Below the pieces are notes generated by a model. That model made no database searches and was not told where the DNA came from. It was given only the letters and a program-made list of their open reading frames with translations. The position numbers and the translations under genes are program-made. A DNA stretch of 64,000 bases from Flagellimonas eckloniae (GTDB lineage Bacteria; Bacteroidota; Bacteroidia; Flavobacteriales; Flavobacteriaceae), in contig NZ_LCTZ01000002.1 of NCBI RefSeq assembly GCF_001413955.1, positions 2,218,501 through 2,282,500 of the forward strand, given 5' to 3'. Numbering within the stretch: the stretch's first letter is position 1; each line of letters opens with the position of its first letter. Shown piece after piece: positions 13,655 to 38,489 of the stretch.

Positions 13655-13697
13655 CAAAACTATTGTAGAAAAGAAAGAAAATAAATGACAATTGTCA
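13655..13697 (-). promoter_or_regulatory. FNR-type site plus -7 box, hpf promoter
   Basis: A perfect palindrome TGACAATTGTCA (13686-13697) is followed on the minus strand by TAGTTTTG (13655-13662), an exact TAnnTTTG match. The centres are 33 nt apart. The -7 box is 23 nt before the hpf ATG. The site lies just after the pfkA stop, so hpf has its own promoter. Confidence 0.75.
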
Positions 13698-13715
13698 GTT
13701 TTGGAGCTTTAGGAG

Positions 13716-15035
13716 CTATCCAAGGAAAAATGGTTGCCCCGTACTTTGAAGTACTGAAAACCAAAAACCGCCTTCTAAGTCAATCTTCTTTCTTTTGGAA
13801 ACAACTGCAGAAATTGGCAGATACACAAATTTATCATTGACCTTACCCACAACAAATTTTGTTTTTCCGCTCATTGCACCATGCACGGCTTGGTATGCCA
13901 AGCTACTACAAAAAACACTGTCACTAGAATTTGCTGCAGCACTTCTGATAATATAACTTGGATCGATATATTTGATTGTCACCGGAAAAACATCTGAGAA
14001 GTAGTCCTTTATTTTTTGTTTTAGAAATATCCCTATATCATCATGTTGAACATTTCCAGAGGCATCGGTCATTACATCATTTTTCTCAAAAAGATGTTGT
14101 CCGGCGCCTTCTGCAACAACAATGACCGCATGATGCTTGGTTTCCAATCTACTTTTTAAAACCTCCAAAAAGCCATTTTTACCATAAAGCTCAAAATCTA
14201 ACTCTGGAACAAGGACAAAGTTCACTACTGGCATAGCAAGCGAAGCGGATGCAGCAATAAAACCGCTATCCCTACCCATTAACTTAATTATTGCAATGCC
14301 ATTATAAGCTCCAGCAGCTTCATTATGTGCATCTTTTAAAATTGGACTTGCAATATCAAATGCCGTTTCAAAACCAAAAGATTTATCAATAATATCAACA
14401 TCATTATCTATGGTCTTGGGAATTCCGACAACACTGATATCCAGACCTCTTTTCATAATTTCTTCACCAATGGCATTGCATCCTTTTAGGGTACCATCAC
14501 CTCCTATTGTAAAGAGCATTTGAACATCATTTTTCAACAAGGTGTCAACCATTACCGAAACATCTTGTGCTCCTCTTGAGGAGCCTAAAATAGTGCCACC
14601 AAACTGATGAATGTCCTTTACTTTATCAGGAGTGAGCTCTATAAAACCATGTCCCATTTCAGGATTTAACCCTTCAAATCCATAGGGAACCCCCAAAATC
14701 TTTTTGACTCCATAAAAATAATGAAGTGCCATCACTATTCCGCGGATCACATTGTTGATTCCTGGGCAAAGCCCTCCACAGGTAACAATAGCGGCAGTGG
14801 AATTTTCTGGATCAAAATGAATATTCTGCCTTGGACCAGCTTTTTCAAAACATAATGGTTCTTCATTATTGGCCAAACATTTGGCATAGCCTTCCAAAGA
14901 AGTATCGAAAACCATTTTGTCGGTTTCGCTGATAAATGTAAAAATATCATCTCCCCTTACAGTACTTAACTGAAGGGGAGATTTTAATTTAGGAACTCCT
15001 AAATTTTCTATTTGGAATTCGATTTTATTACTCAC
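13716..15035 (-). CDS. pfkA: 6-phosphofructokinase family protein
   Basis: A 439-aa long-type phosphofructokinase. The phosphate-binding block GGLCPGINNVIRG, GSSRGAQD, TIGGDGTLKGCN, GIPKTIDND and MGRDSGFIA are all present. Gly (not Asp) in GGDGT predicts use of ATP rather than pyrophosphate. Lys in PKTIDND is shared with long ATP-dependent enzymes such as those of trypanosomatids and with PPi enzymes. The reaction is fructose-6-phosphate to fructose-1,6-bisphosphate in glycolysis. The start appears to be GTG at 15035, 12 nt after the pckA stop. It is the last gene of the FNR-site-led usp-SLC13-pckA-pfkA operon. Confidence 0.9.
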   Translation of the reverse strand: MSNKIEFQIENLGVPKLKSPLQLSTVRGDDIFTFISETDKMVFDTSLEGYAKCLANNEEPLCFEKAGPRQNIHFDPENSTAAIVTCGGLCPGINNVIRGIVMALHYFYGVKKILGVPYGFEGLNPEMGHGFIELTPDKVKDIHQFGGTILGSSRGAQDVSVMVDTLLKNDVQMLFTIGGDGTLKGCNAIGEEIMKRGLDISVVGIPKTIDNDVDIIDKSFGFETAFDIASPILKDAHNEAAGAYNGIAIIKLMGRDSGFIAASASLAMPVVNFVLVPELDFELYGKNGFLEVLKSRLETKHHAVIVVAEGAGQHLFEKNDVMTDASGNVQHDDIGIFLKQKIKDYFSDVFPVTIKYIDPSYIIRSAAANSSDSVFCSSLAYQAVHGAMSGKTKFVVGKVNDKFVYLPISAVVSKRKKIDLEGGFWFSVLQSTGQPFFLG

Positions 15036-15047
15036 TTTGTCTTACAA

Positions 15048-16676
15048 TTAAAAATGCCCATCCAAGCTATGGTGTGAATCAATCAGTGGCCCACCATTTA
15101 GAATCTCTTCTGACGCTTCACTAGCAAATTTATCAAAATTAATATGGAATGAATGTGCCAATTGAATTGCTTTGCTTACATAAGCTCCTTTTTGCAACCA
15201 AGTATTCATAGGGTCCAAAATCTCAGTCGGCACTCCCGGACAATATTTGGGCATGTGTAATCCAAAAATAGGATGGGCATCAAAGTCTACTTTATCCAAG
15301 TCACCTTCCAAAATGGCCGAAATCATTGCTCTGGTATATTTCAATTTAATTCTTGAACCAACACCGTAGGGACCACCACTCCATCCAGTATTCACCAGCC
15401 ATACATTAACACCTGCTTCGGTCATTTTCTTACTCAACATTTCTGCATAAACCGCAGGGTGCAAAGGCATAAATGGTTCTCCAAAACATGCGGAGAATGA
15501 AGGTACCGGTTCATTGATCCCTGCTTCTGTACCAGCAACTTTTGCAGTATATCCAGAAATGAAATGGTAAGCCGCCTGCCCGGGGGTCAGCTTAGAAACC
15601 GGAGGCAATACACCAAAGGCGTCACAAGTTAAGAAAAAGATGTTTTTTGGGTTTTTTGCATAAGATGGTATCTGGATATTGTCAATATGATCAATAGGAT
15701 AGCTTACCCTCGTATTTTGGGTAATGGAGCTATCAAAGTAATCCACCTCTTTGGTTCCTTCTTTGAAAACAACATTTTCCAACAGCGCTCCAGGTCTAAT
15801 AGCTCGGTAGATATCTGGCTCTTTTTCTTCGGTTAAGTCTATAACCTTGGCATAACATCCTCCTTCAAAATTAAAGATGGTGTTTTCAGCTGTCCAACCA
15901 TGCTCATCATCACCTATTAATTTTCTATTGGGGTCTGCAGACAAGGTTGTTTTTCCCGTGCCGGACAAACCAAAGAAGATAGCGGTATCGCCTTTCTCGC
16001 CCACATTGGCAGAACAATGCATAGGCAACACATTCTTATCTATTGGAAGTATTAAATTCAATGCGGAAAAGATACCTTTCTTCATCTCCCCTGGATATTC
16101 TGATCCTCCAACTAAAGCAATCTTGCGAGTAAAATTAAGAATAGAAAAATTACCTGCGATGATTCCAAAATCCTTTGGATTAGGTGCTTCATAACCAGGC
16201 GCACATAGTACCAACCATTCTTCATCAAAGTCTTGTAATTCCTCTTCTGAAAGTCTCAAGAACATATTCTTGATAAAGTAATTGGACCAAGGATATTCCG
16301 TAATCGTGCGAACGTTCATGGTATAGTCTGGGTGAGCACAAACTGCAGCATCCCTTACATATACTTCTTTGTTTGATAGATACTTGGCAATCTCATCATA
16401 CAATTTATCAAAGTTCGCAGGGGAGATTGGTTTGTTAATTCTACCCCACCACACCCTATCTTTTGTATATTCATCTTTTACCAAAAAACGATCTTTAGGT
16501 GAGCGTCCTGTAAACTTTCCTGTATTTATAGATAGTGTTCCATTTTCAGTTTCGGCACCCATACCTTTTTCAACGGTAATGCGTTGCAAGGTCTCAGCAT
16601 CTAAATTCCAAAGTGCAGTAGTATTCTGTATTCCGTACTTGCTTAAATCTTTAGCTTTTTCCATGACTTCATTCAT
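15048..16676 (-). CDS. pckA: Phosphoenolpyruvate carboxykinase (ATP)
   Basis: Interconverts oxaloacetate and phosphoenolpyruvate with ATP/ADP. The ATP-type signature is clear: P-loop GLSGTGKTTLSADPNR and the metal-binding block LIGDDEHGW. The substrate-binding RSPKDRFLVKDEYT is near the N-terminus, and STGWSGG-like NTGWSGGPYGVG is near the C-terminus. The start is placed at ATG 16676 (MNEVMEKAKDLSKYG, about 542 aa), the usual size; in-frame ATGs at 16712 and 16706 would overlap the transporter stop at 16694. In fermenting bacteria this enzyme can run toward oxaloacetate and make ATP on the way to succinate; the FNR-type promoter of its operon makes that direction plausible here. Confidence 0.95.
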   Translation of the reverse strand: MNEVMEKAKDLSKYGIQNTTALWNLDAETLQRITVEKGMGAETENGTLSINTGKFTGRSPKDRFLVKDEYTKDRVWWGRINKPISPANFDKLYDEIAKYLSNKEVYVRDAAVCAHPDYTMNVRTITEYPWSNYFIKNMFLRLSEEELQDFDEEWLVLCAPGYEAPNPKDFGIIAGNFSILNFTRKIALVGGSEYPGEMKKGIFSALNLILPIDKNVLPMHCSANVGEKGDTAIFFGLSGTGKTTLSADPNRKLIGDDEHGWTAENTIFNFEGGCYAKVIDLTEEKEPDIYRAIRPGALLENVVFKEGTKEVDYFDSSITQNTRVSYPIDHIDNIQIPSYAKNPKNIFFLTCDAFGVLPPVSKLTPGQAAYHFISGYTAKVAGTEAGINEPVPSFSACFGEPFMPLHPAVYAEMLSKKMTEAGVNVWLVNTGWSGGPYGVGSRIKLKYTRAMISAILEGDLDKVDFDAHPIFGLHMPKYCPGVPTEILDPMNTWLQKGAYVSKAIQLAHSFHINFDKFASEASEEILNGGPLIDSHHSLDGHF

Positions 16677-16693
16677 AATTTTTGTTTTTAAGG

Positions 16694-18532
16694 TTAAAAG
16701 TTCCATATCCATGGAACCAATATTAATGTTGCAACAAAAAATAGGAGCAGTAATGGCCCTCCCACTTTTATGTAGTCTATAAATTTGTATCCCCCAGATG
16801 ACATTACCATGGCATTGGTAGTCGTTCCAACCGGAGTTAAAAAAGCGGTAGAGGCACTAATTGCCACTCCAATCATAAATGGCTTGGGGGACACTCCCAA
16901 TGTAGTTGAGGCCACAATGGCAATAGGCGCCATTAAAACTGCGGTTGCAGAATTGTTTATCGTTTGACTGAGTGTGGTGGTCAATAAAAATATTCCTCCC
17001 AAAAGTGCTATAGGATGAATGCTCCCAAGTGAGTTTACCAAGCTATTGGCAGCCAATTGAGCCACACCCGTCTTTTGCAGTGCAATCCCCATAGGAATCA
17101 TTGCCGCTATCATTATTACACTTGTCCAACTAATTCCTTTGTATGCTTTTGAAATAGGAACACATCGTGTTAACAACATGATTCCTGCACAAATTAAAGC
17201 GGCTATGGCTCCTGGAAGTATCTTAAATACCAATAACAAAATCATAAGTATAAGTGTTCCAATAGCAACATAACTACGTGCATTTAGTATAGCCACATTT
17301 TTTGACATTGATTCTGGACTCCCCGAAATCAATACGTTTTCATACAAAGACTTTAGTGTTTCTATGTTTGTCCAGGATCCGCGAATTACAAAGGCATCAC
17401 CAGCTGCAATTTTTATTCTGCCCTTAAGGGCTCTATTGTTTCTTGAAGCTGCCAATAATTGAACCCCGGCTTGTTTTAGATAATTTCCCAAATTGATGGT
17501 TTTACCTACGAATACAGAGTTTGGGGTAATCAGCATTTCAGCCATTCCTACTTCTTGATTAATCAGCTCATTTTTAAGGGTATCTCTTTCTGCCTTGGTT
17601 GGAACAATGCCCAAATTATATCGTAAAACCAATTTATCGACTGCCTCTGGTTCACCTTCCACAGTTATAATATCATGATATCGCATTTCGGTATCAGGGT
17701 CAGGCAATTCAACAAACTGAGGGACCTTGTGTTGTAATGGACTGGGATGTCTGCGTTTTAAACGCATTACTGATATATTGTGTTCATCTTCAAAATTCCA
17801 ATGCCCTATCCTAGTATTTATAAAAGGGGACATTGAGCGTATCCTTAGACGATATAGGTTATCCCCGATACTATAATTTTCAATCCATTTGTGCATTTCA
17901 GCATCAATATTGGCTGGTCTTTCATTAGTTTTTCGTTTGGGCAATAAGCGGTAGCCAACGTACCTGAAATACACAATTGCAATAATCAACAACGGCAATC
18001 CTATCAAACTGAATTCAAAGAATGAGAACCCCTCAAAATTATTTTCAACCAAGGCGTTGCTAGCAATGATATTGGGAGGTGTCCCTGTAAGGGTTAAAAG
18101 TCCTCCAGTATTTGAGCCAAAAGCCACGGGCATAAGTAATTTTGATGGCAAAGTGCCGGCACTCCACGCGGCGGACACTGTGACGGGCAACAAGGCCGCT
18201 ACCGTTCCTGTATTGCTTACAAAGCCCGAAAGAACACTAGCTCCCAAAGTGACAATGACCAATAGTTTTGGGATACTCTTTCCTGCCCAACCCACAAAAC
18301 GCTGCCCTGCCAATGCAGTCCATCCTGTTCTGGAAAGTCCTTCTCCAATGATGAACAAAGCAGCAATCATTATAACTGTTGAATTGCTAAAGCCCGACAA
18401 GGTTTCTTTAACATCCAAAATGCCTGTTAGATAGAGTGACAACATGGACATGAGCGCCACAACATCCGGTGGAAACTTGCCCCAAATAAATAATAGGATT
18501 GTAATACCCAGTATTACCAATAATGTGAACAT
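16694..18532 (-). CDS. SLC13/DASS family transporter with RCK_C (TrkA-C) domains
   Basis: A 612-aa inner-membrane permease. The N-terminal half has several membrane segments and the first family motif FVSNTGTVAALLPV, then NTGGLLTLTGTPPNIIAS. Residues about 200-400 form a cytoplasmic insert with two TrkA-C-like domains (YHDIITVEGEPEAVDKL, GDAFVIRGSWTNIETL). The C-terminal half repeats the fold with the second motif TINNSATAVLMAPIAI. The family moves dicarboxylates, sulfate or related anions with sodium. The neighbouring pckA suggests a C4-dicarboxylate, possibly succinate export at low oxygen, but sulfate remains possible for the RCK-containing subgroup. It follows usp by 22 nt. Confidence 0.88.
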   Translation of the reverse strand: MFTLLVILGITILLFIWGKFPPDVVALMSMLSLYLTGILDVKETLSGFSNSTVIMIAALFIIGEGLSRTGWTALAGQRFVGWAGKSIPKLLVIVTLGASVLSGFVSNTGTVAALLPVTVSAAWSAGTLPSKLLMPVAFGSNTGGLLTLTGTPPNIIASNALVENNFEGFSFFEFSLIGLPLLIIAIVYFRYVGYRLLPKRKTNERPANIDAEMHKWIENYSIGDNLYRLRIRSMSPFINTRIGHWNFEDEHNISVMRLKRRHPSPLQHKVPQFVELPDPDTEMRYHDIITVEGEPEAVDKLVLRYNLGIVPTKAERDTLKNELINQEVGMAEMLITPNSVFVGKTINLGNYLKQAGVQLLAASRNNRALKGRIKIAAGDAFVIRGSWTNIETLKSLYENVLISGSPESMSKNVAILNARSYVAIGTLILMILLLVFKILPGAIAALICAGIMLLTRCVPISKAYKGISWTSVIMIAAMIPMGIALQKTGVAQLAANSLVNSLGSIHPIALLGGIFLLTTTLSQTINNSATAVLMAPIAIVASTTLGVSPKPFMIGVAISASTAFLTPVGTTTNAMVMSSGGYKFIDYIKVGGPLLLLFFVATLILVPWIWNF

Positions 18533-18554
18533 ATCTTTTCTGTTGGAATAATCA

Positions 18555-19346
18555 TCAGTCCAAGCTTAAAACCGGTATCTCCGAATGCAGGGTCAACAGC
18601 TTTGTCAATCGTCCCTCAGAAGGAGAACTCAATCTGGCATGGTTTCTTGGCAAAATGGCAAGAAGATCAATGTTTTTCTTGTTGATATAATTTAGAATAC
18701 CTTCTTCAACATCTTGATTTTTATTGAATGTATGTTCCACATAAAAATGCTCTAAATAATATTCCAATAAATTTTCTGTACTATCAACAATGGACTCCTC
18801 TGCATAAACAGATTCCTTATAAATGGTAAGCACATGTACCTTGGAATTAAAGGTGCGGGCAAGATCTAAAAGGGTCTTTAAAACTTCCTTGTCCTCAATT
18901 TCCTCGTTGCCCATTACCAAGGCGATTTCTTTGGGTTCTTTAATACTGCATCCATAAGGAATGGAAACAACAGGGCAATTAGCGTTCAACACTAATTTTG
19001 ATGTATTGGTTATAGCTTCATCCGTAACTTTATCGCCCATAGTTCCCATCATAATCAAATCAGCCTCATTTTCTTCCTGCATGGCAAGAATACTTTCAAT
19101 GACTTCACCTGTAACAACGGCTAGTTTTGGAGCTTTTTTTGTTTTGGCTGAAAATGAGTCAATAACATTTTCAAAGTCCAATCTCAACCTTTTCTCCTCA
19201 GACTCCGTAATCGGCATAACTGAAACATATAAGGTCTCTATATCAACAACTCTATTAGGCCCGGCAAAGTTCATTACATAAGCCAAAGCATTGATGGATG
19301 CTTCAGAAAAATCGAATGGGACCAAAATTTTATTAATGCTACTCAT
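18555..19346 (-). CDS. Tandem universal stress protein (UspA family)
   Basis: A 263-aa protein made of two Usp domains. The first opens with INKILVPFDFSEASINALAY, the typical phosphate-site strand, and contains the ATP-loop-like block LIMMGTMGDKVTDEAITNTS followed by CPVVSIPYG. The second is more diverged and ends in GRLTKLLTLHSEIPVLSLD. Usp proteins are cytoplasmic stress factors often induced by FNR-type regulators in other bacteria. It is the first gene of the operon with the SLC13 transporter, pckA and pfkA, and has an FNR-type promoter directly upstream. Confidence 0.88.
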   Translation of the reverse strand: MSSINKILVPFDFSEASINALAYVMNFAGPNRVVDIETLYVSVMPITESEEKRLRLDFENVIDSFSAKTKKAPKLAVVTGEVIESILAMQEENEADLIMMGTMGDKVTDEAITNTSKLVLNANCPVVSIPYGCSIKEPKEIALVMGNEEIEDKEVLKTLLDLARTFNSKVHVLTIYKESVYAEESIVDSTENLLEYYLEHFYVEHTFNKNQDVEEGILNYINKKNIDLLAILPRNHARLSSPSEGRLTKLLTLHSEIPVLSLD

Positions 19347-19380
19347 ACCAAAAAAATTAAATTATTAAAAATCTTCACTT

Positions 19381-19423
19381 CAAAAATAGAACCGCACCTT
19401 GACCTAAAATATGACAGAAATCA
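19381..19423 (-). promoter_or_regulatory. FNR-type site plus -7 box, usp-SLC13-pckA-pfkA operon
   Basis: On the minus strand TGATTTCTGTCA (19412-19423) precedes TATTTTTG (19381-19388), an exact TAnnTTTG box. The centres are 33 nt apart. The -7 box is 34 nt before the usp ATG. The divergent ROK gene has no matching box on its side. Confidence 0.72.
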
Positions 19424-19527
19424 GGTTTTAAAATTTTAGCATTAAAACACGCTATCATATTGTTTTAAATCCTTTTATGAACTCCATATTATTTATCTTT
19501 AAGTATCTCAATAAAAAGCACGGGGTC

Positions 19528-20514
19528 ATGGAATTAGTTTTAGGAATAGACATTGGAGGAACCAAAACAAAGATTGGATTGGTTGATAAAAGTGGGAAGT
19601 GCCATATAAAGGCTGTTTTTAGAACAAGGGAATTCCCCAACTTGGAAGATTATCTAGATAAAGTCAAGGGTGTTTCAAATGAACTCATCCAAAGTATTGA
19701 TGAAAAAACAACCATTTTAGGTTGTGGCATCGGTGCTCCAAATGCCTCCAGTAAAAATGGCACAATAGAAAATGCAAGTAATTTGGTATGGAAGGGCAGT
19801 GTTCCAATTCTTGAAAAATTAAGGGAGAGGATGGATATGCCCATGAGAATTATGAATGATGCAAGTGCTGCCGCATTGGGCGAAATGCTTTTTGGGGGAG
19901 CTCAAAACCTAACTGATTTTATAGTAATTACACTTGGTACAGGTTTTGGCGCAGGGATTGTTGCAAATGGAAGATTAATTGACGGATATGATGGTTTTGC
20001 CGGGGAATTGGGTCATGTAGATATGACCATAGGTGATGGCAGGCTAACGGGACTGGGGATTCGAGGTGGATTGGAAGCCTATGTATCTGCCACCGGCCTA
20101 AAACGGACTATAATGTACATGTTAAGCAAGTATTTGGTTGATAGTAGGTTTAGGAATATTGCATACAACGATTTACATGGCGAAGATATTACGAAAGCAG
20201 CCGAAGAAGGAGATATAATTGCCTTAAAGGCTTTTGATTATACAGCAAAAATTATGGCTCAGGCGCTAGCTAATTTCACGGCCTTTACACAACCTGAAGC
20301 CTTTATTCTAATGGGAGGTTTGACAAATAGCGGCAAATGGATAAAAGAACCGCTTGAATCTTATTTTAATGAATTTCTCTTAGATGTCTACAAAGGCAAG
20401 GTAAAATTGTTGGAATCGGGCATGCACGGAAAAACAGCGGCAATTTGTGGAGCGGCTGCCTTAATATGGGAAATCCAGGAAACCCAATCTAAGCCCAAAA
20501 TGGATAGGATTTAA
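19528..20514 (+). CDS. ROK family sugar kinase
   Basis: A 328-aa ROK-family protein, probably a glucokinase-like cytosolic sugar kinase. The phosphate-binding motif LGIDIGGTKTKIG is at the N-terminus. The catalytic Asp is in MNDASAAALGE and the second ATP loop is ITLGTGFGAGIV. ELGHVDM retains the conserved His. Unusually, the zinc-binding motif CxCGxxGCxE that normally follows is replaced by GDGRLTGLGIRGGLEAY, with all its cysteines missing. The start is placed at ATG 19528, directly before the motif; an in-frame ATG at 19477 would add 17 residues. It is not preceded by the FNR-type promoter arrangement seen around it. Confidence 0.85.
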   Translation: MELVLGIDIGGTKTKIGLVDKSGKCHIKAVFRTREFPNLEDYLDKVKGVSNELIQSIDEKTTILGCGIGAPNASSKNGTIENASNLVWKGSVPILEKLRERMDMPMRIMNDASAAALGEMLFGGAQNLTDFIVITLGTGFGAGIVANGRLIDGYDGFAGELGHVDMTIGDGRLTGLGIRGGLEAYVSATGLKRTIMYMLSKYLVDSRFRNIAYNDLHGEDITKAAEEGDIIALKAFDYTAKIMAQALANFTAFTQPEAFILMGGLTNSGKWIKEPLESYFNEFLLDVYKGKVKLLESGMHGKTAAICGAAALIWEIQETQSKPKMDRI

Positions 20515-20523
20515 TACCGGAAC

Positions 20524-20567
20524 TGACAAGTATCATACTTTTTTGCAACAATAAACGCAAAACTTTG
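20524..20567 (+). promoter_or_regulatory. FNR-type site plus -7-like box, DUF2490 gene promoter
   Basis: TGACAAGTATCA (20524-20535) precedes AAACTTTG (20560-20567), an imperfect TAnnTTTG. The centre distance is 34 nt, the only one of the set that is not 33. The box ends 25 nt before the ATG at 20593. Confidence 0.6.
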
Positions 20568-20592
20568 TACTCCAGAAATAAAGACCAATATT

Positions 20593-21309: not shown

Positions 21310-21335
21310 TAGGTAAAAGAGGTATTGCCAAGACC

Positions 21336-21378
21336 TGATTATTATCATACTTTTTGACGATTGTCCTATCTAACTTTA
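21336..21378 (+). promoter_or_regulatory. FNR-type site plus -7 box, tonB promoter
   Basis: TGATTATTATCA (21336-21347) precedes TAACTTTA (21371-21378), which fits TAnnTTTG except for the last base. The centre distance is 33 nt. The box ends 22 nt before the tonB ATG. Confidence 0.68.
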
Positions 21379-21400
21379 TCTTAATTAAATAGGAAAAATC

Positions 21401-22126: not shown

Positions 22127-22149
22127 TCATTGTAAGTTCTAAAAAAACA

Positions 22150-22180
22150 GAGGCTCTTGAATAAAATCTTGAGCCTTTTT
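22150..22180. terminator. Bidirectional terminator between tonB and the AstE-like gene
   Basis: The hairpin arms AGGCTC and GAGCCT are flanked by a T run on the plus side (GAGCCTTTTTTATTT) and an A run on the left (AAAAAAACAG), which is a T run on the other strand. It therefore serves both convergent genes. Confidence 0.78.
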
Positions 22181-22183
22181 TAT

Positions 22184-23380: not shown

Positions 23381-23383
23381 AAT

Positions 23384-25231: not shown

Positions 25232-25264
25232 ATCCAAGAACTTACTACTTCTTTACGGTTCGAA

Positions 25265-25307
25265 TAAAACTACAAAGTGTTCAGACCATAAAATATGATT
25301 CTTGTCA
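25265..25307 (-). promoter_or_regulatory. FNR-type site plus -7 box, GCS2/CBS-AstE operon
   Basis: The plus-strand palindrome TGATTCTTGTCA (25296-25307) is followed in the minus direction by TAGTTTTA (25265-25272), a near match to TAnnTTTG. The centres are 33 nt apart and the box is 33 nt before the ATG. It is one of two separate sites in the region shared with hemN. Confidence 0.7.
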
Positions 25308-25329: not shown

Positions 25330-25372
25330 TGACATTTATCATGTTTTTTAAAAACATGGCAGGTTAATTTTG
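25330..25372 (+). promoter_or_regulatory. FNR-type site plus -7 box, hemN-usp operon
   Basis: TGACATTTATCA (25330-25341) precedes TAATTTTG (25365-25372), an exact TAnnTTTG box, with centres 33 nt apart. The arrangement and both sequences are identical to those in front of the FNR-family gene at 37669-37711. Confidence 0.78.
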
Positions 25373-27590: not shown

Positions 27591-27628
27591 TGATTGTTTT
27601 TTTGATGGGGTTTTGTTTTATTTAAATT

Positions 27629-27661
27629 GAAAAAGGGAAGCTTTACAAGTTTCCCTTTTTT
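27629..27661. terminator. Bidirectional terminator between usp and the acetyl-CoA hydrolase gene
   Basis: A strong hairpin with arms AAAAAGGGAA and TTTCCCTTTTTT has T runs in both directions, between two convergent genes. It would end both the hemN-usp and the long cco-operon transcripts. Confidence 0.82.
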
Positions 27662-27682
27662 ATGTTATGTATCGCCAAAATA

Positions 27683-28951: not shown

Positions 28952-28961
28952 TTTTATGTTT

Positions 28962-30121: not shown

Positions 30122-30132
30122 AGTGCTATTTT

Positions 30133-31542: not shown

Positions 31543-31614
31543 TGCAATTGTATTTTAACCTCAACAGTATTTCTAAATCTGCACCTCTTCTTGAGGTATA
31601 AGGTGCCGGTTCTT

Positions 31615-32568
31615 TTAATTCATTGCTACATCTGTAGAATCAGAAACCTGTTCCGTTGGAGTTTCTTCAATAGTTTCTTCTGATTCAGGTGCATCTGGAT
31701 CAACCCAAATTTCACCTTCTGGTGCTTTTGGATCTGCTGGGGTTGTACCTCCCAATGTTAATATATAACTGGCCACTTGTGCCATTTCTACAGGTTTTAG
31801 ACTTTGTTTCCAGGCAATCATACCCTTACCATCGCGTCCACCTTCAGAAATAGTATTGAATACATTTTTGATGCCTCCGCCCAAAATCCAATATTCATCA
31901 GTTAGGTTGGGGCCGATTCCACCTCCACCATCAGCCATATGACATGCAACACAGTTTGTTGTAAATATTTTTTCTCCAGCACTCAAATCTGCAGCTTCGG
32001 ATAAAAATTCCACGGTATTGACATCGACCAAATCCTTAGCGGTTTTCTTATATTCTTCAATGGCGATTTTAGCTGCTGCCACTTCCTGTTCGTATTCCAA
32101 TTTCTGGTCATAGTCGCCAGCAACATGAAAGCGTATGAGATAAACTACTGCAAAAATGATAGTGGCATAAAAGAGGTATACCCACCAAGGCGGCAAAACA
32201 TTGTCCAACTCCCTAATTCCATCATAATTGTGGTCCAAGATTATTTCACCTTCTTTTTCAATCTCCTTGGTCTTGGTAAGGCGCTTATAGATGCTTTTAA
32301 CCCATGTCCATTCCCTTTTCTTGGCCTTGGATGCCAAGTAACGTTCTTTCGCCTCTTCTGAAAGTGTTTGGAACATTACATTTTCAATGGAACTTAAAAT
32401 AAGTTCTATGGCAATCAATATCAACAATACCATCAACAGAAAAAACTGCGTAATTGGATATTCGATGATAGCTGGTTTTTCACCAGAATCTATGAAGTAT
32501 TCCATTAATCCAAAGATGATGAAGAATAGCAGTGGAATACGTATCCACCAAGGTGTTCTTGTGCTCAT
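31615..32568 (-). CDS. ccoP: cbb3-type cytochrome c oxidase subunit III (CcoP-like), single haem motif
   Basis: A 317-aa membrane-bound cytochrome c. Two N-terminal hydrophobic segments (IPLLFFIIFGLMEYFI, FFLLMVLLILIAIEL) precede a cytoplasmic stretch. A third segment (WWVYLFYATIIFAVVYLI) follows the LDNVLPPWW block typical of CcoP. Only one haem motif, CVACH (206-210), is present; proteobacterial CcoP has two. The Asp/Pro/Glu-rich C-terminal tail is unusual in look but consistent with exposed position. It starts 4 nt after the ccoQ stop. Confidence 0.9.
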   Translation of the reverse strand: MSTRTPWWIRIPLLFFIIFGLMEYFIDSGEKPAIIEYPITQFFLLMVLLILIAIELILSSIENVMFQTLSEEAKERYLASKAKKREWTWVKSIYKRLTKTKEIEKEGEIILDHNYDGIRELDNVLPPWWVYLFYATIIFAVVYLIRFHVAGDYDQKLEYEQEVAAAKIAIEEYKKTAKDLVDVNTVEFLSEAADLSAGEKIFTTNCVACHMADGGGGIGPNLTDEYWILGGGIKNVFNTISEGGRDGKGMIAWKQSLKPVEMAQVASYILTLGGTTPADPKAPEGEIWVDPDAPESEETIEETPTEQVSDSTDVAMN

Positions 32569-32572
32569 AATG

Positions 32573-32758
32573 CTATAGTTTATTTTGTTGATCGTTATCT
32601 AAAGGCAGTTCTCCCATCTCTTTTATATGTGCTTTGCTAGCAGTAAATACCCACCAAAACAAGAGGACAAAAAACACGAAGAATATTAACAAGGATATCA
32701 TAGGATAACTTGCAATACCTTCTATACTTTCCATATGGTTTTTCACAAATTTCAACAT
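32573..32758 (-). CDS. ccoQ: CcoQ-like small subunit of cbb3 oxidase
   Basis: A 61-aa protein with one membrane span (MISLLIFFVFFVLLFWWVF) and a polar C-terminal tail. Its size, position between the ccoNO fusion and ccoP, and tight spacing identify it as CcoQ-like. CcoQ stabilises the CcoN-CcoO-CcoP assembly. Confidence 0.82.
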   Translation of the reverse strand: MLKFVKNHMESIEGIASYPMISLLIFFVFFVLLFWWVFTASKAHIKEMGELPLDNDQQNKL

Positions 32759-32782
32759 GGCTTATTTGTTTTGAGATTGTAA

Positions 32783-34963
32783 TTACTTTGTTTCTTTTAC
32801 TTTAATATCAGTTCCCAATCGTTGCAAGTAAGCAATCAATGCAACAATCTCCCTATCACGCATTTCAATAAAATCCTCTCCATTTTCTTGCGCATATTTT
32901 TTATCGGCCTCATAGGTTCTTTCAAATTCTGGATCTGTATATAGATTCTTCTCTATCTGGATGGCTTGTTCAGCCATAGATTGCGGCGCATTGGCTATAT
33001 CTTCATCCGTATAAGGCACACCAAGACTAACCATAGCTTCCATTTTACTTTGTACGGCGCTTCTATCATGTTCATTTACAACCAACCACTGATAGGCAGG
33101 CATAATAGACCCTGAAGACGTACTTTGGGGATCATACATATGGTTCAAGTGCCAATTATCTGAGTACTTCCCTCCAATTCGCAATAAATCTGGACCAGTT
33201 CGCTTACTACCCCATAGGAAAGGATGGTCATACACAAACTCTCCCGCTTTGGCATATTCGCCATAGCGCTCCACTTCACTTCTAAAAGGTCTGATCATTT
33301 GGGAATGACAACCCACACAACCTTCACGAATGTATAGATCCCTTCCTTCCAATTCTAAAGGTGTATATGGTTTTACACTTGTGATGGTAGGAATATTGGA
33401 TTTTACCAGAATAGTAGGCACAATCTGGATAATCCCTCCTATTAAAATGGCAACTGTGGCCAAAATGGTCAATTGCACTGGTCTTCTTTCCAACCAGTTG
33501 TGGAAAGTCTCTCCTGCAGTTCTTCTTTTAGAGACTCTTGTCAGAGCAGGTGCTTCAGCTAATTCATCTTCTACTGAGCTTCCTTTTCTAATTGTGACAA
33601 TCACATTGTAGACCATGATCAACATACCAACAAGGAACATGGTACCTCCTATAGCACGCATCCAATACATTGGAATGATTTGGGTAACGGTTTCCAAGAA
33701 ATTTCCATAGACCAATGATCCATCTGGGTTAAATTCTTTCCACATTAGGGCTTGGGTAAACCCAGCAACATACATGGGCAATGCATATAGGATAATACCT
33801 AAGGTACCAATCCAGAAATGCAAGTTTGCCAATCCTTTTGAATACAGTGTTGTCTTGAACATTTTTGGTACCAGCCAATAAATCATACCGAAGGTCAAAA
33901 ATCCATTCCAAGCCAGTGCCCCCACATGTACGTGAGCAATAATCCAATCGCTAAAATGCGCAATGGCATTTACATTTTTAAGGGATAGCATAGGCCCTTC
34001 AAATGTGGCCATACCATATCCTGTAATAGCAACTACCATAAATTTTAAAGTGGCGTCACTACGCACTTTATCCCAAACGCCTCTCAAGGTTAAAAGTCCA
34101 TTGATCATACCCCCCCAAGATGGAGCAATCAACATAATAGAGAAAACAACCCCTAAGTTTTGAGCCCAATCTGGTAAAGACGAATACAATAAATGGTGAG
34201 GTCCTGCCCAGATATAAATGAATATCAATGACCAGAAATGGACAATGGAAAGGCGATAAGAATATATAGGCCTATTTGCTGCTTTGGGAACAAAATAATA
34301 CATCAATCCCAAAAATGGTGTGGTTAAAAAGAAGGCTACGGCATTATGTCCGTACCACCATTGCACCAAAGCATCTTGTACACCTGCATACACCGAATAA
34401 CTTTTTAAAGCAGCTACGGGCAACTCCAAACTATTAAAAATATGAAGTACCGCAACGGTAACAAATGTTGCCAGGTAAAACCAAATTGCAACATAGAGAT
34501 GGCGTTGTCTTCTTTTTAAGATGGTTCCAATCAGGTTCCAACCAAAAACAACCCAAACCACGGCGATGGCAATATCTATGGGCCATTCCAATTCTGCATA
34601 TTCTTTAGATGTGGTATACCCCAAAGGCAATGTAATGGCGGCAGCCACAATAATTAGTTGCCAGCCCCAAAAATTAAAATTGCTCAGAAAATCACTAAAC
34701 ATTCTCGCTTTCAGCAATCTTTGGGTGGAATAATAAACCCCGGCAAAGATGGCGTTCCCGACAAATGCAAAAATCACGGCATTGGTATGCAATGGGCGCA
34801 AACGTCCAAAGCTCAACCACGAAATACCATCTGTGATATTGGGAAACAAAAACATAAACGCCAGTAGCAGTCCTACCAGCATTCCAACAACGCCCCATAG
34901 CATGGTAGCGTATAAAAACTTTTGTACGATTTTGTTATCGTAGCTAAATTGTTGTATTTCCAT
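32783..34963 (-). CDS. ccoNO: cbb3-type cytochrome c oxidase, fused subunits I and II
   Basis: A 726-aa fusion. The first 490 or so residues are CcoN, the haem-copper catalytic subunit with about 12 membrane spans and conserved His-rich segments (RPLHTNAVIFAFVGNAIF, QWWYGHNAVAFFLTTPFLG, GPHHLLYSSLPDWAQ, IAHVHVGALAWNG). The rest is CcoO with one membrane anchor and a single haem c site CVGCH (549-553) in GCVGCHSQMIRPF. This high-affinity oxidase reduces oxygen to water at low oxygen tension. The N-O fusion is the usual form in Bacteroidetes. Its start overlaps the end of ccoS by 20 nt. Confidence 0.96.
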   Translation of the reverse strand: MEIQQFSYDNKIVQKFLYATMLWGVVGMLVGLLLAFMFLFPNITDGISWLSFGRLRPLHTNAVIFAFVGNAIFAGVYYSTQRLLKARMFSDFLSNFNFWGWQLIIVAAAITLPLGYTTSKEYAELEWPIDIAIAVVWVVFGWNLIGTILKRRQRHLYVAIWFYLATFVTVAVLHIFNSLELPVAALKSYSVYAGVQDALVQWWYGHNAVAFFLTTPFLGLMYYFVPKAANRPIYSYRLSIVHFWSLIFIYIWAGPHHLLYSSLPDWAQNLGVVFSIMLIAPSWGGMINGLLTLRGVWDKVRSDATLKFMVVAITGYGMATFEGPMLSLKNVNAIAHFSDWIIAHVHVGALAWNGFLTFGMIYWLVPKMFKTTLYSKGLANLHFWIGTLGIILYALPMYVAGFTQALMWKEFNPDGSLVYGNFLETVTQIIPMYWMRAIGGTMFLVGMLIMVYNVIVTIRKGSSVEDELAEAPALTRVSKRRTAGETFHNWLERRPVQLTILATVAILIGGIIQIVPTILVKSNIPTITSVKPYTPLELEGRDLYIREGCVGCHSQMIRPFRSEVERYGEYAKAGEFVYDHPFLWGSKRTGPDLLRIGGKYSDNWHLNHMYDPQSTSSGSIMPAYQWLVVNEHDRSAVQSKMEAMVSLGVPYTDEDIANAPQSMAEQAIQIEKNLYTDPEFERTYEADKKYAQENGEDFIEMRDREIVALIAYLQRLGTDIKVKETK

Positions 34964-35174
34964 ATATATTGGTTTGTTCTTTACTTTGTTTGATTTCTAT
35001 AATTTCTGCTTCGTTTTCTTCTAAATCACCTACTAATTCATCCTCAAAAAGCATACGGACGGAAGGTGTATATGCATCATCATATTGTCCACTTTTGACC
35101 GAAAAGACAAAAGCAACAAAAAAGACCAGCGCAACTGAAATACTTATGGCCAACAACACATATATAACACTCAT
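34944..35174 (-). CDS. ccoS: cbb3 oxidase maturation protein CcoS
   Basis: A 76-aa protein with one N-terminal span (VIYVLLAISISVALVFFVAF) and the YDDAYTPSVRMLFEDE tail that matches the CcoS family (GQFDD...P..RML). CcoS is required to insert cofactors into the catalytic subunit. It is the first gene of the cco operon and overlaps ccoNO. An FNR-type promoter lies upstream. Confidence 0.92.
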   Translation of the reverse strand: MSVIYVLLAISISVALVFFVAFVFSVKSGQYDDAYTPSVRMLFEDELVGDLEENEAEIIEIKQSKEQTNIYGNTTI

Positions 35175-35193
35175 ACCTACCTGAATTCTAGCG

Positions 35194-35236
35194 TAAAACT
35201 ACATTGACATGTTTGCCTAAAAAATGACATATATCA
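35194..35236 (-). promoter_or_regulatory. FNR-type site plus -7 box, cco operon
   Basis: The plus-strand palindrome TGACATATATCA (35225-35236) is followed in the minus direction by TAGTTTTA (35194-35201), close to TAnnTTTG, with centres 33 nt apart. The box is 19 nt before the ccoS ATG and the site begins just after the ccoI stop, giving the oxidase operon its own promoter. Confidence 0.75.
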
Positions 35237-35243
35237 GCTTTTA

Positions 35244-37616
35244 TTATTTTAATTTTCTTCCTAAAAAGTTTGTACACAAGGTTGTAAAAATCACAATGCT
35301 GATTGAACTCAAAGGCATAAGTATTGCCGCAACTACAGGTTCTAACTGGCCCGTAACCGCGAAATACAATCCAATAACATTATAGCACAATGAGAGGAGG
35401 AAACTGAGCTTTATAATTTGAATTGATTTTCTTGACAGCTTCAGAAAAGCAGGAAGTTTGGTCAGGTTTGAAGCATCTAAAATGGCATCACATGCCGGTG
35501 AAAAAACGTTGATATCTTCAGAAATGGATACACCCACATTACTTTGGGCCAAAGCACCAGCATCGTTAAGTCCGTCACCAACCATAAGTACACTATGGTC
35601 TTTTTGTAGATGTTTGATATAATCTAATTTGTCCTTAGGTTTTTGGTTGAACAGTAAATTGGTTTTAGCAGGAAGTATGCCTTGCAGCTGTTTTCTTTCA
35701 CCATCATTATCACCAGACAATATTCCTATATTCATAGTTTTGCCCAAGGTGGCAAAAAGATCTTCCACCCCATCCCTATATTTATTCTTAAACACAAACC
35801 TACCTTTGAAATCTTCATCAGAACTAATATAAACAGCTGTATCTGATACAAGTTTTGGCATAGATTCTCCAACATAGCTGGCGGAACCTGCCTTAATGGT
35901 ATGCTTATTCAATTTCCCTTCCACTCCCTTGCCAGTATGCTCTTGAAACTCATCCAGAGTAGTTATGGCATTGGATTTTAATATCTCATATAAAGACCTA
36001 CTCAATGGATGGTTGGATGCGCGCAAGGTGGTTTTTAACAATGTGATTTCTTCCTCGGTCAATTCAATCCCTTCATATAGAATGGCATCTTTTGCGGTTG
36101 TTGTTATGGTTCCTGTTTTATCAAATATGGCGGTGTCAATTTTTGACAATCGCTCTATGACATTGGTGTTTTTTAGGTAGAATTTGTGCTTGCCATATAT
36201 GCGAAGCATATTCCCCAGCGTAAATGGAGCGGCAAGAGCGATTGCGCAGGGACATGCAATGATAAGGACAGCTGTAAACACGTTGAGAGCCATACTAGGC
36301 ATATAAAACAACCAAAAAACGGTTGCTAAAATGGCAACACTCAAAACTCCAATAGTAAATCGCTTTCCAATGCTGTCCGTTAATGTTTGAAAGGTGGTTA
36401 TCTTATCTTTTGAAAATATCGAATTGCCCCATAGTTGGGTGAGATAACTTTGTGAAACTGAACGTACAACCTCAATTTCCAAAACCCCTGAAAGCTGTTT
36501 TCCCCCTGCAAAGAGTTTTTCTCCAGAAGCCTTAAAAACCACATTGGATTCTCCGGTTACAAAACTGTAGTCTATTTCGGCATTACCTTTAATCAAAATA
36601 CTGTCTACAGGAATAATTTCCATACTCCTGATCAAGAGCCTATCTCCAGTCTTTATTTTATAGATTTGAATGTTTTCTTCCTCCCCGTTAGCATTCAACC
36701 GTGTCACAGCTATAGGAAAGTACGATTTGTAGTCTCTTTCAAAAGAGAGAAATGAGTAGGTTTTTTGCTGGAAAAACTTTCCCAATAAAAGAAAAAATAC
36801 CAAACCCGTCAGACTATCAAAAAAGCCAGATCCCAAATCAAAAATAATATCAACTGTACTCCTTAAAAACAGGGTTAAGATTCCCAATGCAATGGGAACA
36901 TCGATATTCAATACTTTGGAACGTAGACCTTTATAGGCTGAAATAAAATAATCTTGCCCTGCATAAAATACTACGGGTAGCGAAAAGGCAAACATTAACC
37001 AACGAAATACAGGTTTGTACTGGTCCAACCAAAACTCTTCAACCTCAAAATACTCAGGGAAAGAGAATAGCATTACATTGCCAAAAGCAAAACCTGCAAC
37101 ACCAAGTTTATAGATTAGCGAGCGGTCTACCTTGGTATTTTTCCTGGTATACTCTTCCAAGGAAATGTAAGGTTCATAGCCTATGGCACTTAACAATAGT
37201 ACAAGTGCCTTCAAAGAAAAATCCTGTGACTTATAGGTTACCCGAATGGTCTTTTTGGGGAAGTCTACCTGTGAATTTGATATAGCCGAATGTAGGCGAT
37301 TCAGATTTTCCAATACCCAAATACACGAACTGCAATGGATAGACGGAATGCTCAAATTGACAACTTGAACTCCCTCCTCATTAAATTCAACAAGCTTTTC
37401 AACAATATCCTGATTATCCAGAAAATCGTACTTGTACTGAATTTCATTTGGTGTGGTACCCGCCCTAGCCTCAATATCATAGAAATTGGACAACCCATTG
37501 GAAGTAAAAATCTCATAGACCGTTTTACAACCATTGCAACAAAACTCCTTTTCATCGAAAAGAACCGGTGTGCGATTGCAATCATCCCCACAATGATAAC
37601 ATCTCATGTTTGCCAT
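35244..37616 (-). CDS. ccoI: Heavy-metal P1B-type ATPase for cbb3 oxidase copper supply (CcoI/FixI)
   Basis: A 790-aa copper-transporting ATPase. An N-terminal Cys-rich segment (RCYHCGDDCNRTPV, then CCNGC) precedes an HMA domain with CSSC (95-98). The membrane CPC motif is at 455-457 (IIACPCAIALAAP). The phosphorylated Asp499 lies in FDKTGTITT, and GDGLNDAGAL closes the ATP-binding domain. The N-terminal zinc-ribbon-like region is typical of CcoI/FixI rather than CopA. It transports copper out of the cytoplasm for insertion into CcoN. It is divergent from the FNR-family gene and shares its palindrome. Confidence 0.94.
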   Translation of the reverse strand: MANMRCYHCGDDCNRTPVLFDEKEFCCNGCKTVYEIFTSNGLSNFYDIEARAGTTPNEIQYKYDFLDNQDIVEKLVEFNEEGVQVVNLSIPSIHCSSCIWVLENLNRLHSAISNSQVDFPKKTIRVTYKSQDFSLKALVLLLSAIGYEPYISLEEYTRKNTKVDRSLIYKLGVAGFAFGNVMLFSFPEYFEVEEFWLDQYKPVFRWLMFAFSLPVVFYAGQDYFISAYKGLRSKVLNIDVPIALGILTLFLRSTVDIIFDLGSGFFDSLTGLVFFLLLGKFFQQKTYSFLSFERDYKSYFPIAVTRLNANGEEENIQIYKIKTGDRLLIRSMEIIPVDSILIKGNAEIDYSFVTGESNVVFKASGEKLFAGGKQLSGVLEIEVVRSVSQSYLTQLWGNSIFSKDKITTFQTLTDSIGKRFTIGVLSVAILATVFWLFYMPSMALNVFTAVLIIACPCAIALAAPFTLGNMLRIYGKHKFYLKNTNVIERLSKIDTAIFDKTGTITTTAKDAILYEGIELTEEEITLLKTTLRASNHPLSRSLYEILKSNAITTLDEFQEHTGKGVEGKLNKHTIKAGSASYVGESMPKLVSDTAVYISSDEDFKGRFVFKNKYRDGVEDLFATLGKTMNIGILSGDNDGERKQLQGILPAKTNLLFNQKPKDKLDYIKHLQKDHSVLMVGDGLNDAGALAQSNVGVSISEDINVFSPACDAILDASNLTKLPAFLKLSRKSIQIIKLSFLLSLCYNVIGLYFAVTGQLEPVVAAILMPLSSISIVIFTTLCTNFLGRKLK

Positions 37617-37637
37617 TTACATTTGCTTTACCCAAGG

Positions 37638-37711
37638 CAAAATTGTCACACATTTTATTGTTAAAACATGACATTTATCAGTTCTTGTTCAATACTTTAG
37701 ATTTAATTTTG
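37638..37711. promoter_or_regulatory. Shared FNR-type site with -7 boxes on both sides (ccoI and fnr-like gene)
   Basis: One palindrome, TGACATTTATCA (37669-37680), lies between the two divergent genes. Toward the regulator gene, TAATTTTG (37704-37711) is 33 nt away centre to centre. Toward ccoI, CAATTTTG on the minus strand (37638-37645) is also exactly 33 nt away. A single dimer could activate both promoters, so the regulator is likely autoregulated. Confidence 0.72.
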
Positions 37712-37735
37712 TGCTATCAGGTAAATCAAAACGTT

Positions 37736-38425
37736 ATGGAGAGCAGGTGTGAAAATTGTATCATTAGACAATTCAATTCGCTAAGGGCAATGAGCAAAGA
37801 AGAATTGAAGAAAGTATCCGACTCTAAAACCACAAAAAAAGTCAAAAAAGGAGAGCCTCTTTTTGAGGAAGGTGAGAAATTGAATGGTGTTTTTTGTGTT
37901 CGCGATGGGGTTTCTAAACTCTCCAAACTCAGTGCCAATGGAAAAGATCAAATTGTAAAATTGGCAACCAAAGGAGAAGTGCTTGGACAACGGTCCGTGA
38001 TAGCTGAAGAATGCACCAATCTTTCCGCGATAGCTGTCAATGATATGGAAGTATGTTTTATTCCCAAAGAAAGCATTAACAATACTTTACAAAGCAATCC
38101 GAATTTCACCCTCGAGGTTCTGCGACATATGGCACATGATCTTAAAGAAGCCGATGATGTTATCGTAAACATGTCTCAAAAAACTGTAAAACAACGTATT
38201 GCAGAAGCTTTTTTGTACCTGAAAAATAATTTTGGGGAAGATGAAGATGGCTTTTTGGCCTTAACACTTTCTCGAGAAGACATATCAAATGTAGTGGGTA
38301 CCGCTACGGAGTCTGCCATTCGAATTATTTCAGAATTCAAGAAAAAAGGATTGATTCATACCTCCGGAAAAAAAGTAGGTATAACAAATGAGCGTAAGCT
38401 AGCTGAATTGGTCGAAGGCTTCTAA
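37736..38425 (+). CDS. fnr: Crp/FNR family transcriptional regulator
   Basis: A 229-aa regulator with a cyclic-nucleotide-binding-like sensor domain (about 25-145) and a C-terminal winged helix. The N-terminus has RCENC (Cys5, Cys8), with three further cysteines at 54, 93 and 107, enough for an iron-sulfur cluster of the FNR type. The HTH reads LSREDISNVVGTATESAIRII; Glu and Arg at the positions that contact the TGA half-site in FNR and CRP are kept. The start is the ATG at 37736; an upstream frame beginning at 37568 runs through the promoter. Its neighbours (ccoI, cco operon, hemN) point to an oxygen-responsive role. Confidence 0.9.
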   Translation: MESRCENCIIRQFNSLRAMSKEELKKVSDSKTTKKVKKGEPLFEEGEKLNGVFCVRDGVSKLSKLSANGKDQIVKLATKGEVLGQRSVIAEECTNLSAIAVNDMEVCFIPKESINNTLQSNPNFTLEVLRHMAHDLKEADDVIVNMSQKTVKQRIAEAFLYLKNNFGEDEDGFLALTLSREDISNVVGTATESAIRIISEFKKKGLIHTSGKKVGITNERKLAELVEGF

Positions 38426-38446
38426 AACTGCGCCCAAATCAAAACC

Positions 38447-38489
38447 TGATAATTGTCATAGTATCCCTTTTTCCATAGTGTTAATTTTA
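38447..38489 (+). promoter_or_regulatory. FNR-type site plus -7 box, usp promoter
   Basis: TGATAATTGTCA (38447-38458) precedes TAATTTTA (38482-38489), one base from TAnnTTTG, with centres 33 nt apart. The box ends 23 nt before the usp ATG and the site begins 21 nt after the FNR-like gene stop. Confidence 0.73.

What the first reader, a model, noticed from the sequence alone, without database searches (positions are those of the whole stretch)
13655..38489. Ten promoters with one fixed FNR-site/-7-box geometry define a low-oxygen regulon
Nine palindromes fit TGAYAnnTRTCA when read in the direction of transcription. They serve ten promoters: hpf, usp-SLC13-pckA-pfkA, DUF2490, tonB, GCS2/CBS-AstE, hemN-usp, cco operon, ccoI, the FNR-like gene and usp. 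In nine of ten the palindrome centre is exactly 33 nt from the centre of a TAnnTTTG-like box; the tenth is 34. Chance would not fix this distance. It implies a class II activator at about -41 that replaces the -33 element. Family knowledge: TGA-N6-TCA is the Crp/FNR core. Inference: the regulator at 37736-38425 binds all of them. Co-clustering of pckA, pfkA, hpf, tonB and GCS2/AstE with cbb3/hemN is the less expected part.
Basis: partly seen in the sequence, partly recalled or inferred. Interest (0 to 1): 0.85.

Follow-up and report, generated by a model that had tools for sequence, protein, structure and literature searches.

The report
Low-oxygen regulon with fixed promoter spacing
In a marine flavobacterium, one FNR-like protein probably switches on ten neighbouring low-oxygen promoters from a binding site at a fixed distance from each start, and relatives suggest its oxygen-sensing cysteines are arranged differently from those of the textbook protein.

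Summary
The geometry is real. Nine of ten promoters have the palindrome centre exactly 33 nt from the -7-box centre, the tenth 34. Six of the nine palindromes fit TGAYAnnTRTCA exactly, three have one mismatch; two boxes are variants (ccoI, DUF2490). All nine 33-nt units lie in non-coding DNA of a 94% coding stretch. Mapped Flavobacterium starts put TAnnTTTG at -12 to -5 (PMC9723704, passages), so the palindrome centre falls at -41.5, the classical class II position.

The 33-nt peak recurs across the order (87 of 150 listed pairs) and in 14 named relatives (131 against 1 in the control). It follows the regulator: 30 of 36 genomes with the cysteine-bearing orthologue have sites, 7 of 62 others do. 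Many targets in relatives are low-oxygen genes.

Less expected: the regulator lacks one N-terminal cysteine of textbook FNR but has a conserved Cys54. In one family (15 of 15 genomes) all four cysteines are gone, the DNA-reading helix is kept, and the operator sits over the regulator's own start and about -62 from ccoI. No oxygen response or binding was measured.

The parts
13655..13697 (-). hpf promoter: palindrome 13686-13697 TGACAATTGTCA, box 13655-13662 TAGTTTTG, spacing 33; gene reads down from about 13631 to 13332
   Evidence: hpf Pfam PF02482
19381..19423 (-). usp-SLC13-pckA-pfkA promoter: palindrome 19412-19423 TGATTTCTGTCA (1 mismatch), box 19381-19388 TATTTTTG, spacing 33
20524..20567 (+). 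DUF2490 promoter: palindrome 20524-20535, box 20560-20567 AAACTTTG, spacing 34
21336..21378 (+). tonB promoter: palindrome 21336-21347 (1 mismatch), box 21371-21378 TAACTTTA, spacing 33
25265..25307 (-). GCS2/CBS-AstE promoter: palindrome 25296-25307 (1 mismatch), box 25265-25272 TAGTTTTA, spacing 33
25330..25372 (+). hemN-usp promoter: palindrome 25330-25341, box 25365-25372 TAATTTTG, spacing 33
35194..35236 (-). cco (cbb3 oxidase) operon promoter: palindrome 35225-35236, box 35194-35201 TAGTTTTA, spacing 33
37638..37680 (-). ccoI promoter: palindrome 37669-37680 shared with fnr, box 37638-37645 CAATTTTG, spacing 33
37669..37711 (+). fnr-like gene promoter: palindrome 37669-37680 shared with ccoI, box 37704-37711 TAATTTTG, spacing 33
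38447..38489 (+). usp promoter: palindrome 38447-38458, box 38482-38489 TAATTTTA, spacing 33
37736..38425 (+). FNR-like regulator, 229 aa: cNMP-binding fold plus Crp-type HTH; Cys5, Cys8, Cys54, Cys107 invariant in it and 80 near orthologues
35244..37616 (-). ccoI-like P-type ATPase
32783..34963 (-). ccoNO fusion, first large gene of the cbb3 oxidase operon

Best explanation
The regulator at 37736-38425 is an FNR-type, probably iron-sulfur based, low-oxygen activator. When oxygen falls, a dimer binds the palindrome M-TGAYAnnTRTCA-K centred at -41.5 of each promoter and contacts RNA polymerase as a class II activator; the promoters then need only the Bacteroidota -7 box. One protein would thus switch on cbb3 oxidase, its copper supply, anaerobic haem synthesis (hemN), universal stress proteins, ribosome hibernation (hpf), PEP carboxykinase/phosphofructokinase, TonB and a GCS2-like ligase. 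Its cluster would be held by Cys5, Cys8, Cys54 and Cys107, Cys54 standing in for Cys29 of E. coli FNR. Shown: the geometry, its conservation, its co-occurrence with the gene, the cysteine pattern. Inferred: binding, activation, the cluster, its ligands, oxygen as the signal.
For: Spacing 33 in 9 of 10. Box at -12..-5 in F. psychrophilum, where cbb3 oxidase and haem enzymes rise at oxygen limitation (PMC9723704 passages). Order-wide peak: 87 of 150 listed pairs at 33, mean 3.15 at each other spacing from 23 to 43. 131 vs 1 control in 14 named genomes. Per promoter: 98 of 104 orthologous promoters at spacing 33 outside the window, DUF2490 left out of that sum (2 of 5 at 33, 3 at 34). Presence: 30 of 36 genomes with the Cys-type orthologue carry sites (129 sites), 3 of 15 with the Cys-less orthologue (3 sites), 4 of 47 without an orthologue (9 sites); Fisher p 7e-13 for 30/36 against 7/62, not corrected for kinship. 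Targets in relatives include pyruvate formate lyase, two 2-oxoacid:ferredoxin oxidoreductases, NiFe hydrogenase, a NorC-like cytochrome, Pta, PPDK, HemA, OmpW. Cysteines: of 479 unique homologues (mostly near relatives from three search lists) 432 have CxxC+Cys54+Cys107 without a third N-terminal Cys, 7 have the third Cys but not Cys54, 2 have both.
Against: No binding, expression or spectroscopy data. 6 of 36 Cys-type genomes have no strict 33-nt site. G057 has 6 sites but only a 32% relative. In 9 of 13 other orthologues of the window's family the palindrome lies 18-21 nt, not 33, from the regulator's own box, and outside the family 10 of 22 Cys-type orthologues have no palindrome within 170 nt. 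In F. psychrophilum hypoxia-induced genes are also induced by iron scarcity, the reverse of what a simple [4Fe-4S] activator predicts. Some targets in relatives are not typical of low oxygen (for example a LOG-type protein, NadA, YceI, a heavy-metal-binding domain).
Confidence: 0.8

Rival explanations
1. The sites and geometry are as described, but the regulator's signal is not oxygen through a [4Fe-4S] cluster: it could be a thiol switch, haem, NO or another effector.
For: The position of the canonical third FNR cysteine is Asn in the window protein and 80 of 80 near orthologues; iron scarcity co-induces hypoxia genes in F. psychrophilum.
Against: Four cysteines are conserved together and lost together; many targets are of the FNR kind.
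Confidence: 0.2
2. Another Crp/Fnr paralogue of the genome binds these sites.
For: The genome holds four other HTH_Crp_2 matches, two of them over the cut-off.
Against: The one paralogue read here (L178) has a different recognition region; the other was not read. A palindrome with at most one mismatch lies within 170 nt upstream of 13 of 14 window-family orthologues, in three of them 135-139 nt away. Site counts follow the orthologue.
Confidence: 0.1
3. The protein represses, or both represses and activates, depending on where the palindrome lies.
For: In 9 of 13 other window-family orthologues the palindrome is 18-21 nt from the regulator's own box; in family f4 it covers the expected start.
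Against: At the ten window promoters the palindrome is at about -41.5, where Crp/Fnr proteins activate (established knowledge of the family).
Confidence: 0.1
4. The spacing is a chance or copy artefact, for instance duplicated promoters.
For: Sites are clustered within 25 kb.
Against: Spacer sequences between palindrome and box differ from promoter to promoter; the peak recurs in many genomes and genes.
Confidence: 0.01

Closest known systems
E. coli / Aliivibrio fischeri FNR class II promoters (FNR at -41.5)
   Same: Palindrome with TGA...TCA half-sites centred at -41.5; CRP fold; Cys20, Cys23 and Cys122 equivalents (numbering recalled); hemN- and ompW-like targets (E. coli targets recalled)
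   Different: Bacteroidota -7 box TAnnTTTG instead of -10; site TGAYAnnTRTCA, not TTGATnnnnATCAA (recalled); Cys29 equivalent is Asn14, with an extra conserved Cys54
Bacillus Fnr with a non-cysteine fourth cluster ligand (recalled)
   Same: Precedent for an FNR relative with a changed cluster ligand
   Different: Here the replacement would be a beta-roll cysteine, and the N-terminal CxxC is kept
Porphyromonas gingivalis Crp/Fnr protein 2GAU
   Same: Best structural match of the model (TM 0.88), same phylum
   Different: 28% identity; the matched part begins at residue 22, after the N-terminal cysteine motif
F. psychrophilum sigma-A promoters (PMC9723704)
   Same: Same -7 box at -12 to -5; cbb3 and haem genes induced at oxygen limitation
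   Different: Its main text has 0 occurrences of 'fnr', 'crp' and 'palindrom' (passages seen, supplements not)

Membership tests
Crp/Fnr superfamily | cNMP-binding-type beta-roll plus Crp-type HTH | tested here: met
   Pfam PF00027, PF13545, PF00325; Foldseek FNR 5E44 TM 0.81
Canonical FNR | Four cluster cysteines at the Cys20, Cys23, Cys29, Cys122 positions (recalled) | tested here: not met
   Cys5, Cys8, Cys107 align with Cys20, Cys23, Cys122; the Cys29 position is Asn14 in the window protein and 80 of 80 near orthologues
FNR-like iron-sulfur sensor | Four conserved cysteines able to hold a cluster | tested here: inconclusive
   Cys5, 8, 54, 107 all present in 434 of 479 unique homologues; cluster not testable here
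FNR-like iron-sulfur sensor | Oxygen-labile [4Fe-4S] cluster controls dimerisation and DNA binding | not testable with these tools
   needs protein chemistry
Class II Crp/Fnr-dependent promoter | Operator centred at about -41.5 | tested here: met
   Spacing 33 from a box at -12..-5; the start sites of this species are not mapped
Class II Crp/Fnr-dependent promoter | Transcription depends on the regulator | not testable with these tools
   needs a mutant
FNR recognition of TGA-N6-TCA | Glu and Arg of the recognition helix (E209, R213 in E. coli, recalled) | tested here: met
   GTATESAIR aligns with Glu and Arg kept; the S212 position (recalled) is Ile

The most novel reading that the evidence does not exclude
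Flavobacteriales use an FNR variant whose cluster is held by CxxC plus two beta-roll cysteines (Cys54 replacing Cys29), working through one fixed -41.5 / -7-box promoter design. One family lost all four cysteines yet kept the DNA-reading helix and the palindrome, moving it over the regulator's own start and to about -62 of ccoI, that is, turning an oxygen-sensing class II activator into a cluster-free autorepressor that may act as a class I activator.
Probability: 0.45. Interest if true: 0.78.

Novelty: new variant of a known kind. Interest (0 to 1): 0.62.

Why it matters
Bacteroidota promoters lack the usual -35/-10 elements, and how activators work on them is little known (my knowledge). Here is a sharply defined activator geometry, shared over much of an order, that can be read directly from genomes, so low-oxygen regulons could be predicted base by base in flavobacteria. 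The cysteine pattern points to a different way of building an FNR oxygen sensor, and the cysteine-less family is a natural experiment in how a regulator and its operators change together.

Tried and rejected
Rejected: chance (Markov shuffles and reversed-pattern controls). Not decided: whether the T-rich stretch after the palindrome is a remnant -33 element; it has a weaker A-rich mirror at -53 to -50, so it may be an extended operator, but it is asymmetric. Rejected as likely chance: own-genome 33-nt matches at 2675929 (inside an ORF) and 2746018 (no evident gene in the right direction); those at 3032141, 3344928 and 3745838 were not followed. Tried: class I geometry in family f4. Apart from the fnr/ccoI region, recurring matches at spacing 43-44 are promoters with a repeated ATTTAGAAT/ATTCTAAAT element that looks Fur-like to me (recalled), so no general class I rule is claimed (listing capped). 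Tried: a pattern for palindromes just after a box; in f4 it finds the regulator's own operator in each of the 15 genomes and scattered others. Tried: breadth over the phylum; the 177 genomes outside the order gave 15 matches in 13 genomes against 1 in the control, four of them in one family (f34), so something weak may exist beyond the order and was not followed. Literature: searches (top listings only) showed no paper on an FNR regulon or FNR cysteine ligands in flavobacteria; most subscription papers are not in the library. Of PMC9723704 and PMC12937710 I saw passages only.

Limits: genomes are related, so counts are not independent. In one search palindromes with one mismatch were allowed, spacings of 30-36 were searched, ties went to 33, one 24%-identity usp hit (G110) was dropped, and the GCS2 match of G108 lies 291 nt and the tonB match of G111 187 nt before the start as aligned. 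The same scan before nine other genes of the cluster gave a full-score box at 33 in 3 cells, two of them artefacts of a gene cut by the end of its locus. In one search smaller counts also stand at gap 0 (39) and gap 17 (14). Rows beyond the 150 listed were not seen. The three homologue searches list only the best 120 each. That f4 proteins are orthologues rests on similarity in 15 and on a ccoI neighbour in the 3 neighbourhoods read.
Full report
What was checked. The ten sites were read in the direction of transcription. Palindrome centre to box centre is 33 nt in nine cases and 34 for DUF2490. Eight boxes fit TAnnTTT[GA]; ccoI has CAATTTTG and DUF2490 AAACTTTG. Palindromes alone are only mildly enriched in the window (17 with up to one mismatch, shuffle mean 9.9, 5 of 100 shuffles reach 17). 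The pairing is what stands out: with palindromes of at most one mismatch and the TA box, the window holds 8 pairs at spacing 33 and 1 pair in all other gaps from 5 to 45; 60 Markov shuffles hold none at 33. All nine 33-nt units avoid coding DNA although 94% of the stretch is coding. The seventh exact palindrome of the window, at 6732, is inside an ORF and has no box.

Where the start must be. In Flavobacterium psychrophilum TAnnTTTG sits at -12 to -5 (PMC9723704, passages). The box centre is then -8.5 and the palindrome centre -41.5, the canonical class II position of Crp/Fnr activators (established knowledge). Starts of this species are not mapped. The same paper reports strong induction of cbb3 oxidase and of haem synthesis at oxygen limitation.

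Genome-wide. The genome (G000, 4.13 Mb) has 22 exact palindromes (control 10), 7 of them in this window. TGAN6TCA+23+TAnnTTTR occurs 16 times, control 2; 8 of the 16 are in the cluster. Of the 8 outside, three precede plausible genes: OmpW (386395), a biotin-lipoyl protein (146157) and a thioredoxin-like protein (3334147); an exact palindrome at spacing 32 (1971485) precedes a CBM48-type gene. A relative's site also precedes a biotin-lipoyl gene and another's an OmpW gene. On this pattern most of the regulon sits in one 25-kb island.

Relatives. In 80 loci around near orthologues the strict palindrome shows 211 boxes at gap 23 and 0 or 1 at each other gap from 18 to 38; smaller counts stand at gap 17 (14) and gap 0 (39). 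Across 98 genomes of the order, 87 of the 150 listed palindrome/box pairs are at spacing 33, 11 at 32, 16 at 34, mean 3.15 at each spacing from 23 to 43 other than 33. The fixed pattern gives 141 matches in 37 of 98 genomes, control 4. In 14 named genomes (Flagellimonas and neighbours, chosen from the 80 loci) a slightly looser pattern gives 131 against 1. In the phylum sample the TTTG form is found in 17 of 19 genomes of the window's family; the 177 genomes outside the order gave 15 matches in 13 genomes, control 1.

Promoter by promoter (spacing 33 / orthologues found in the 14 named genomes): hpf 7/7, usp-led operon 10/10, tonB 10/10, GCS2 8/9, hemN 12/12, ccoNO 14/14, ccoI 14/14, fnr 9/14, usp 14/14: 98 of 104. 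ccoI and fnr share one palindrome. DUF2490 is 2 of 5 at 33 and 3 of 5 at 34. The odd ccoI box is itself conserved (CAnnTTTG in 13 of 14 relatives).

What the sites drive elsewhere. I fetched 100 of the 103 sites at spacing 33 listed for 12 genomes; 97 have an open reading frame downstream. Recurrent: usp (12), hemN (10), ccoNO (6), fnr-like (5), hpf (3), tonB (3). Of the rest I chose 29 proteins for Pfam: pyruvate formate lyase, two pyruvate/2-oxoacid ferredoxin oxidoreductases, NiFe hydrogenase small subunit, NorC-like cytochrome, phosphotransacetylase, PPDK, glutamyl-tRNA reductase, OmpW, PPK2, a ferritin-like (Dps) protein and a sulfite-oxidase-like protein fit low oxygen or stress; a LOG-type protein, NadA, YceI, a heavy-metal domain and others do not obviously fit; four had no Pfam match. 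In G081 hpf and tonB keep the site although far from fnr. This reads as a low-oxygen regulon.

Link to the regulator. Genomes with a cysteine-bearing orthologue have sites in 30 of 36 cases (129 sites); with the cysteine-less orthologue 3 of 15 (3 sites); without an orthologue 4 of 47 (9 sites) (using). Within the window's family two genomes have neither a close orthologue nor any site (G034, G076); G057 is the exception (6 sites, 32% relative). The regulator's recognition helix keeps Glu and Arg of FNR.

The regulator itself. It aligns with A. fischeri FNR over the cysteine motif: Cys5, Cys8 and Cys107 fall on Cys20, Cys23 and Cys122 (numbering recalled), but Asn14 falls on Cys29. Cys5, Cys8, Cys54 and Cys107 are invariant in the window protein and 80 of 80 near orthologues. 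Of 479 unique homologues, most of them near relatives from three search lists, 432 have CxxC, Cys54 and Cys107 and no third N-terminal Cys; 19 lack the CxxC part (the examples seen have short N-termini) but keep Cys54 and Cys107; 7 paralogues have the third Cys and not Cys54; 2 have both; 16 have none of them; 3 fit no group. A third N-terminal Cys and Cys54 are thus nearly mutually exclusive. In the AlphaFold model (mean pLDDT 84) Cys54 and Cys107 lie in strands 51-57 and 104-110. That these strands are neighbours in the beta-roll is recalled, not measured. I infer that Cys54 is the fourth ligand.

The cysteine-less family. In all 15 f4 genomes the orthologue (beside ccoI in the 3 neighbourhoods read) has lost all four cysteines but keeps the GTATESAIR helix. 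In all 15 the palindrome directly follows the gene's own TATTTTTG box (gap 0 or 1), 5-7 nt before the start codon, that is, over the expected start. On the other strand the same palindrome is 53 nt (10 genomes) or 54 nt (5 genomes) from a TAATTTTG box, towards ccoI where the neighbour was read, about -61.5 or -62.5, a class I position. In 9 of 13 other orthologues of the window's family the palindrome is 18-21 nt from the regulator's own box, where it might block rather than activate; in 61 of 64 near loci with a palindrome it is 33, as in the window. One operator thus appears in three arrangements. Repression and class I activation are inferences.

Verdict. The promoter geometry shared over much of the order, the changed cysteine set and the cysteine-less family are the new parts. 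The top listings of my searches showed no open paper describing them.

Noticed in passing
L196 (G000:C2:2395212-2395223) with flanks: A perfect 24-nt inverted repeat AGAACCTGATACGTATCAGGTTCT between the ORFs listed, with no -7 box at 33 on either side; another operator or a terminator-like element.
   Followed up: no
family f4 genomes, e.g. G018:C1:2875969-2876021 and G087:C2:119260-119313: Recurring promoters in which an FNR-type palindrome ends 33-34 nt before a TAnnTTTG box (spacing 43-44) with a Fur-like ATTTAGAAT/ATTCTAAAT element between them; possible joint iron and FNR-type control.
   Followed up: no
window 37638-37645 and orthologues: The ccoI box is CAnnTTTG in the window and in 13 of 14 relatives: a conserved departure from TAnnTTTG.
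   Followed up: partly
window 19412-19423 and 21336-21347: The usp-led and tonB palindromes keep one mismatch in most relatives (8 of 10 and 7 of 10), as if weaker binding were maintained.
   Followed up: no
L176 (G045, family f10): A second FNR-type protein (29% identity, with CxxC, Cys54 and Cys107) also has the palindrome 33 nt from a TATTTTTG box in front of its own gene.
   Followed up: no
phylum family f34 (G132, G262, G285): Four matches of the strict 33-nt pattern in three genomes outside the order, each with TCAT at the end of the palindrome as in most of the window's sites.
   Followed up: no
window 12661-13290 (-): 209-aa ORF next to hpf with no Pfam match.
   Followed up: no
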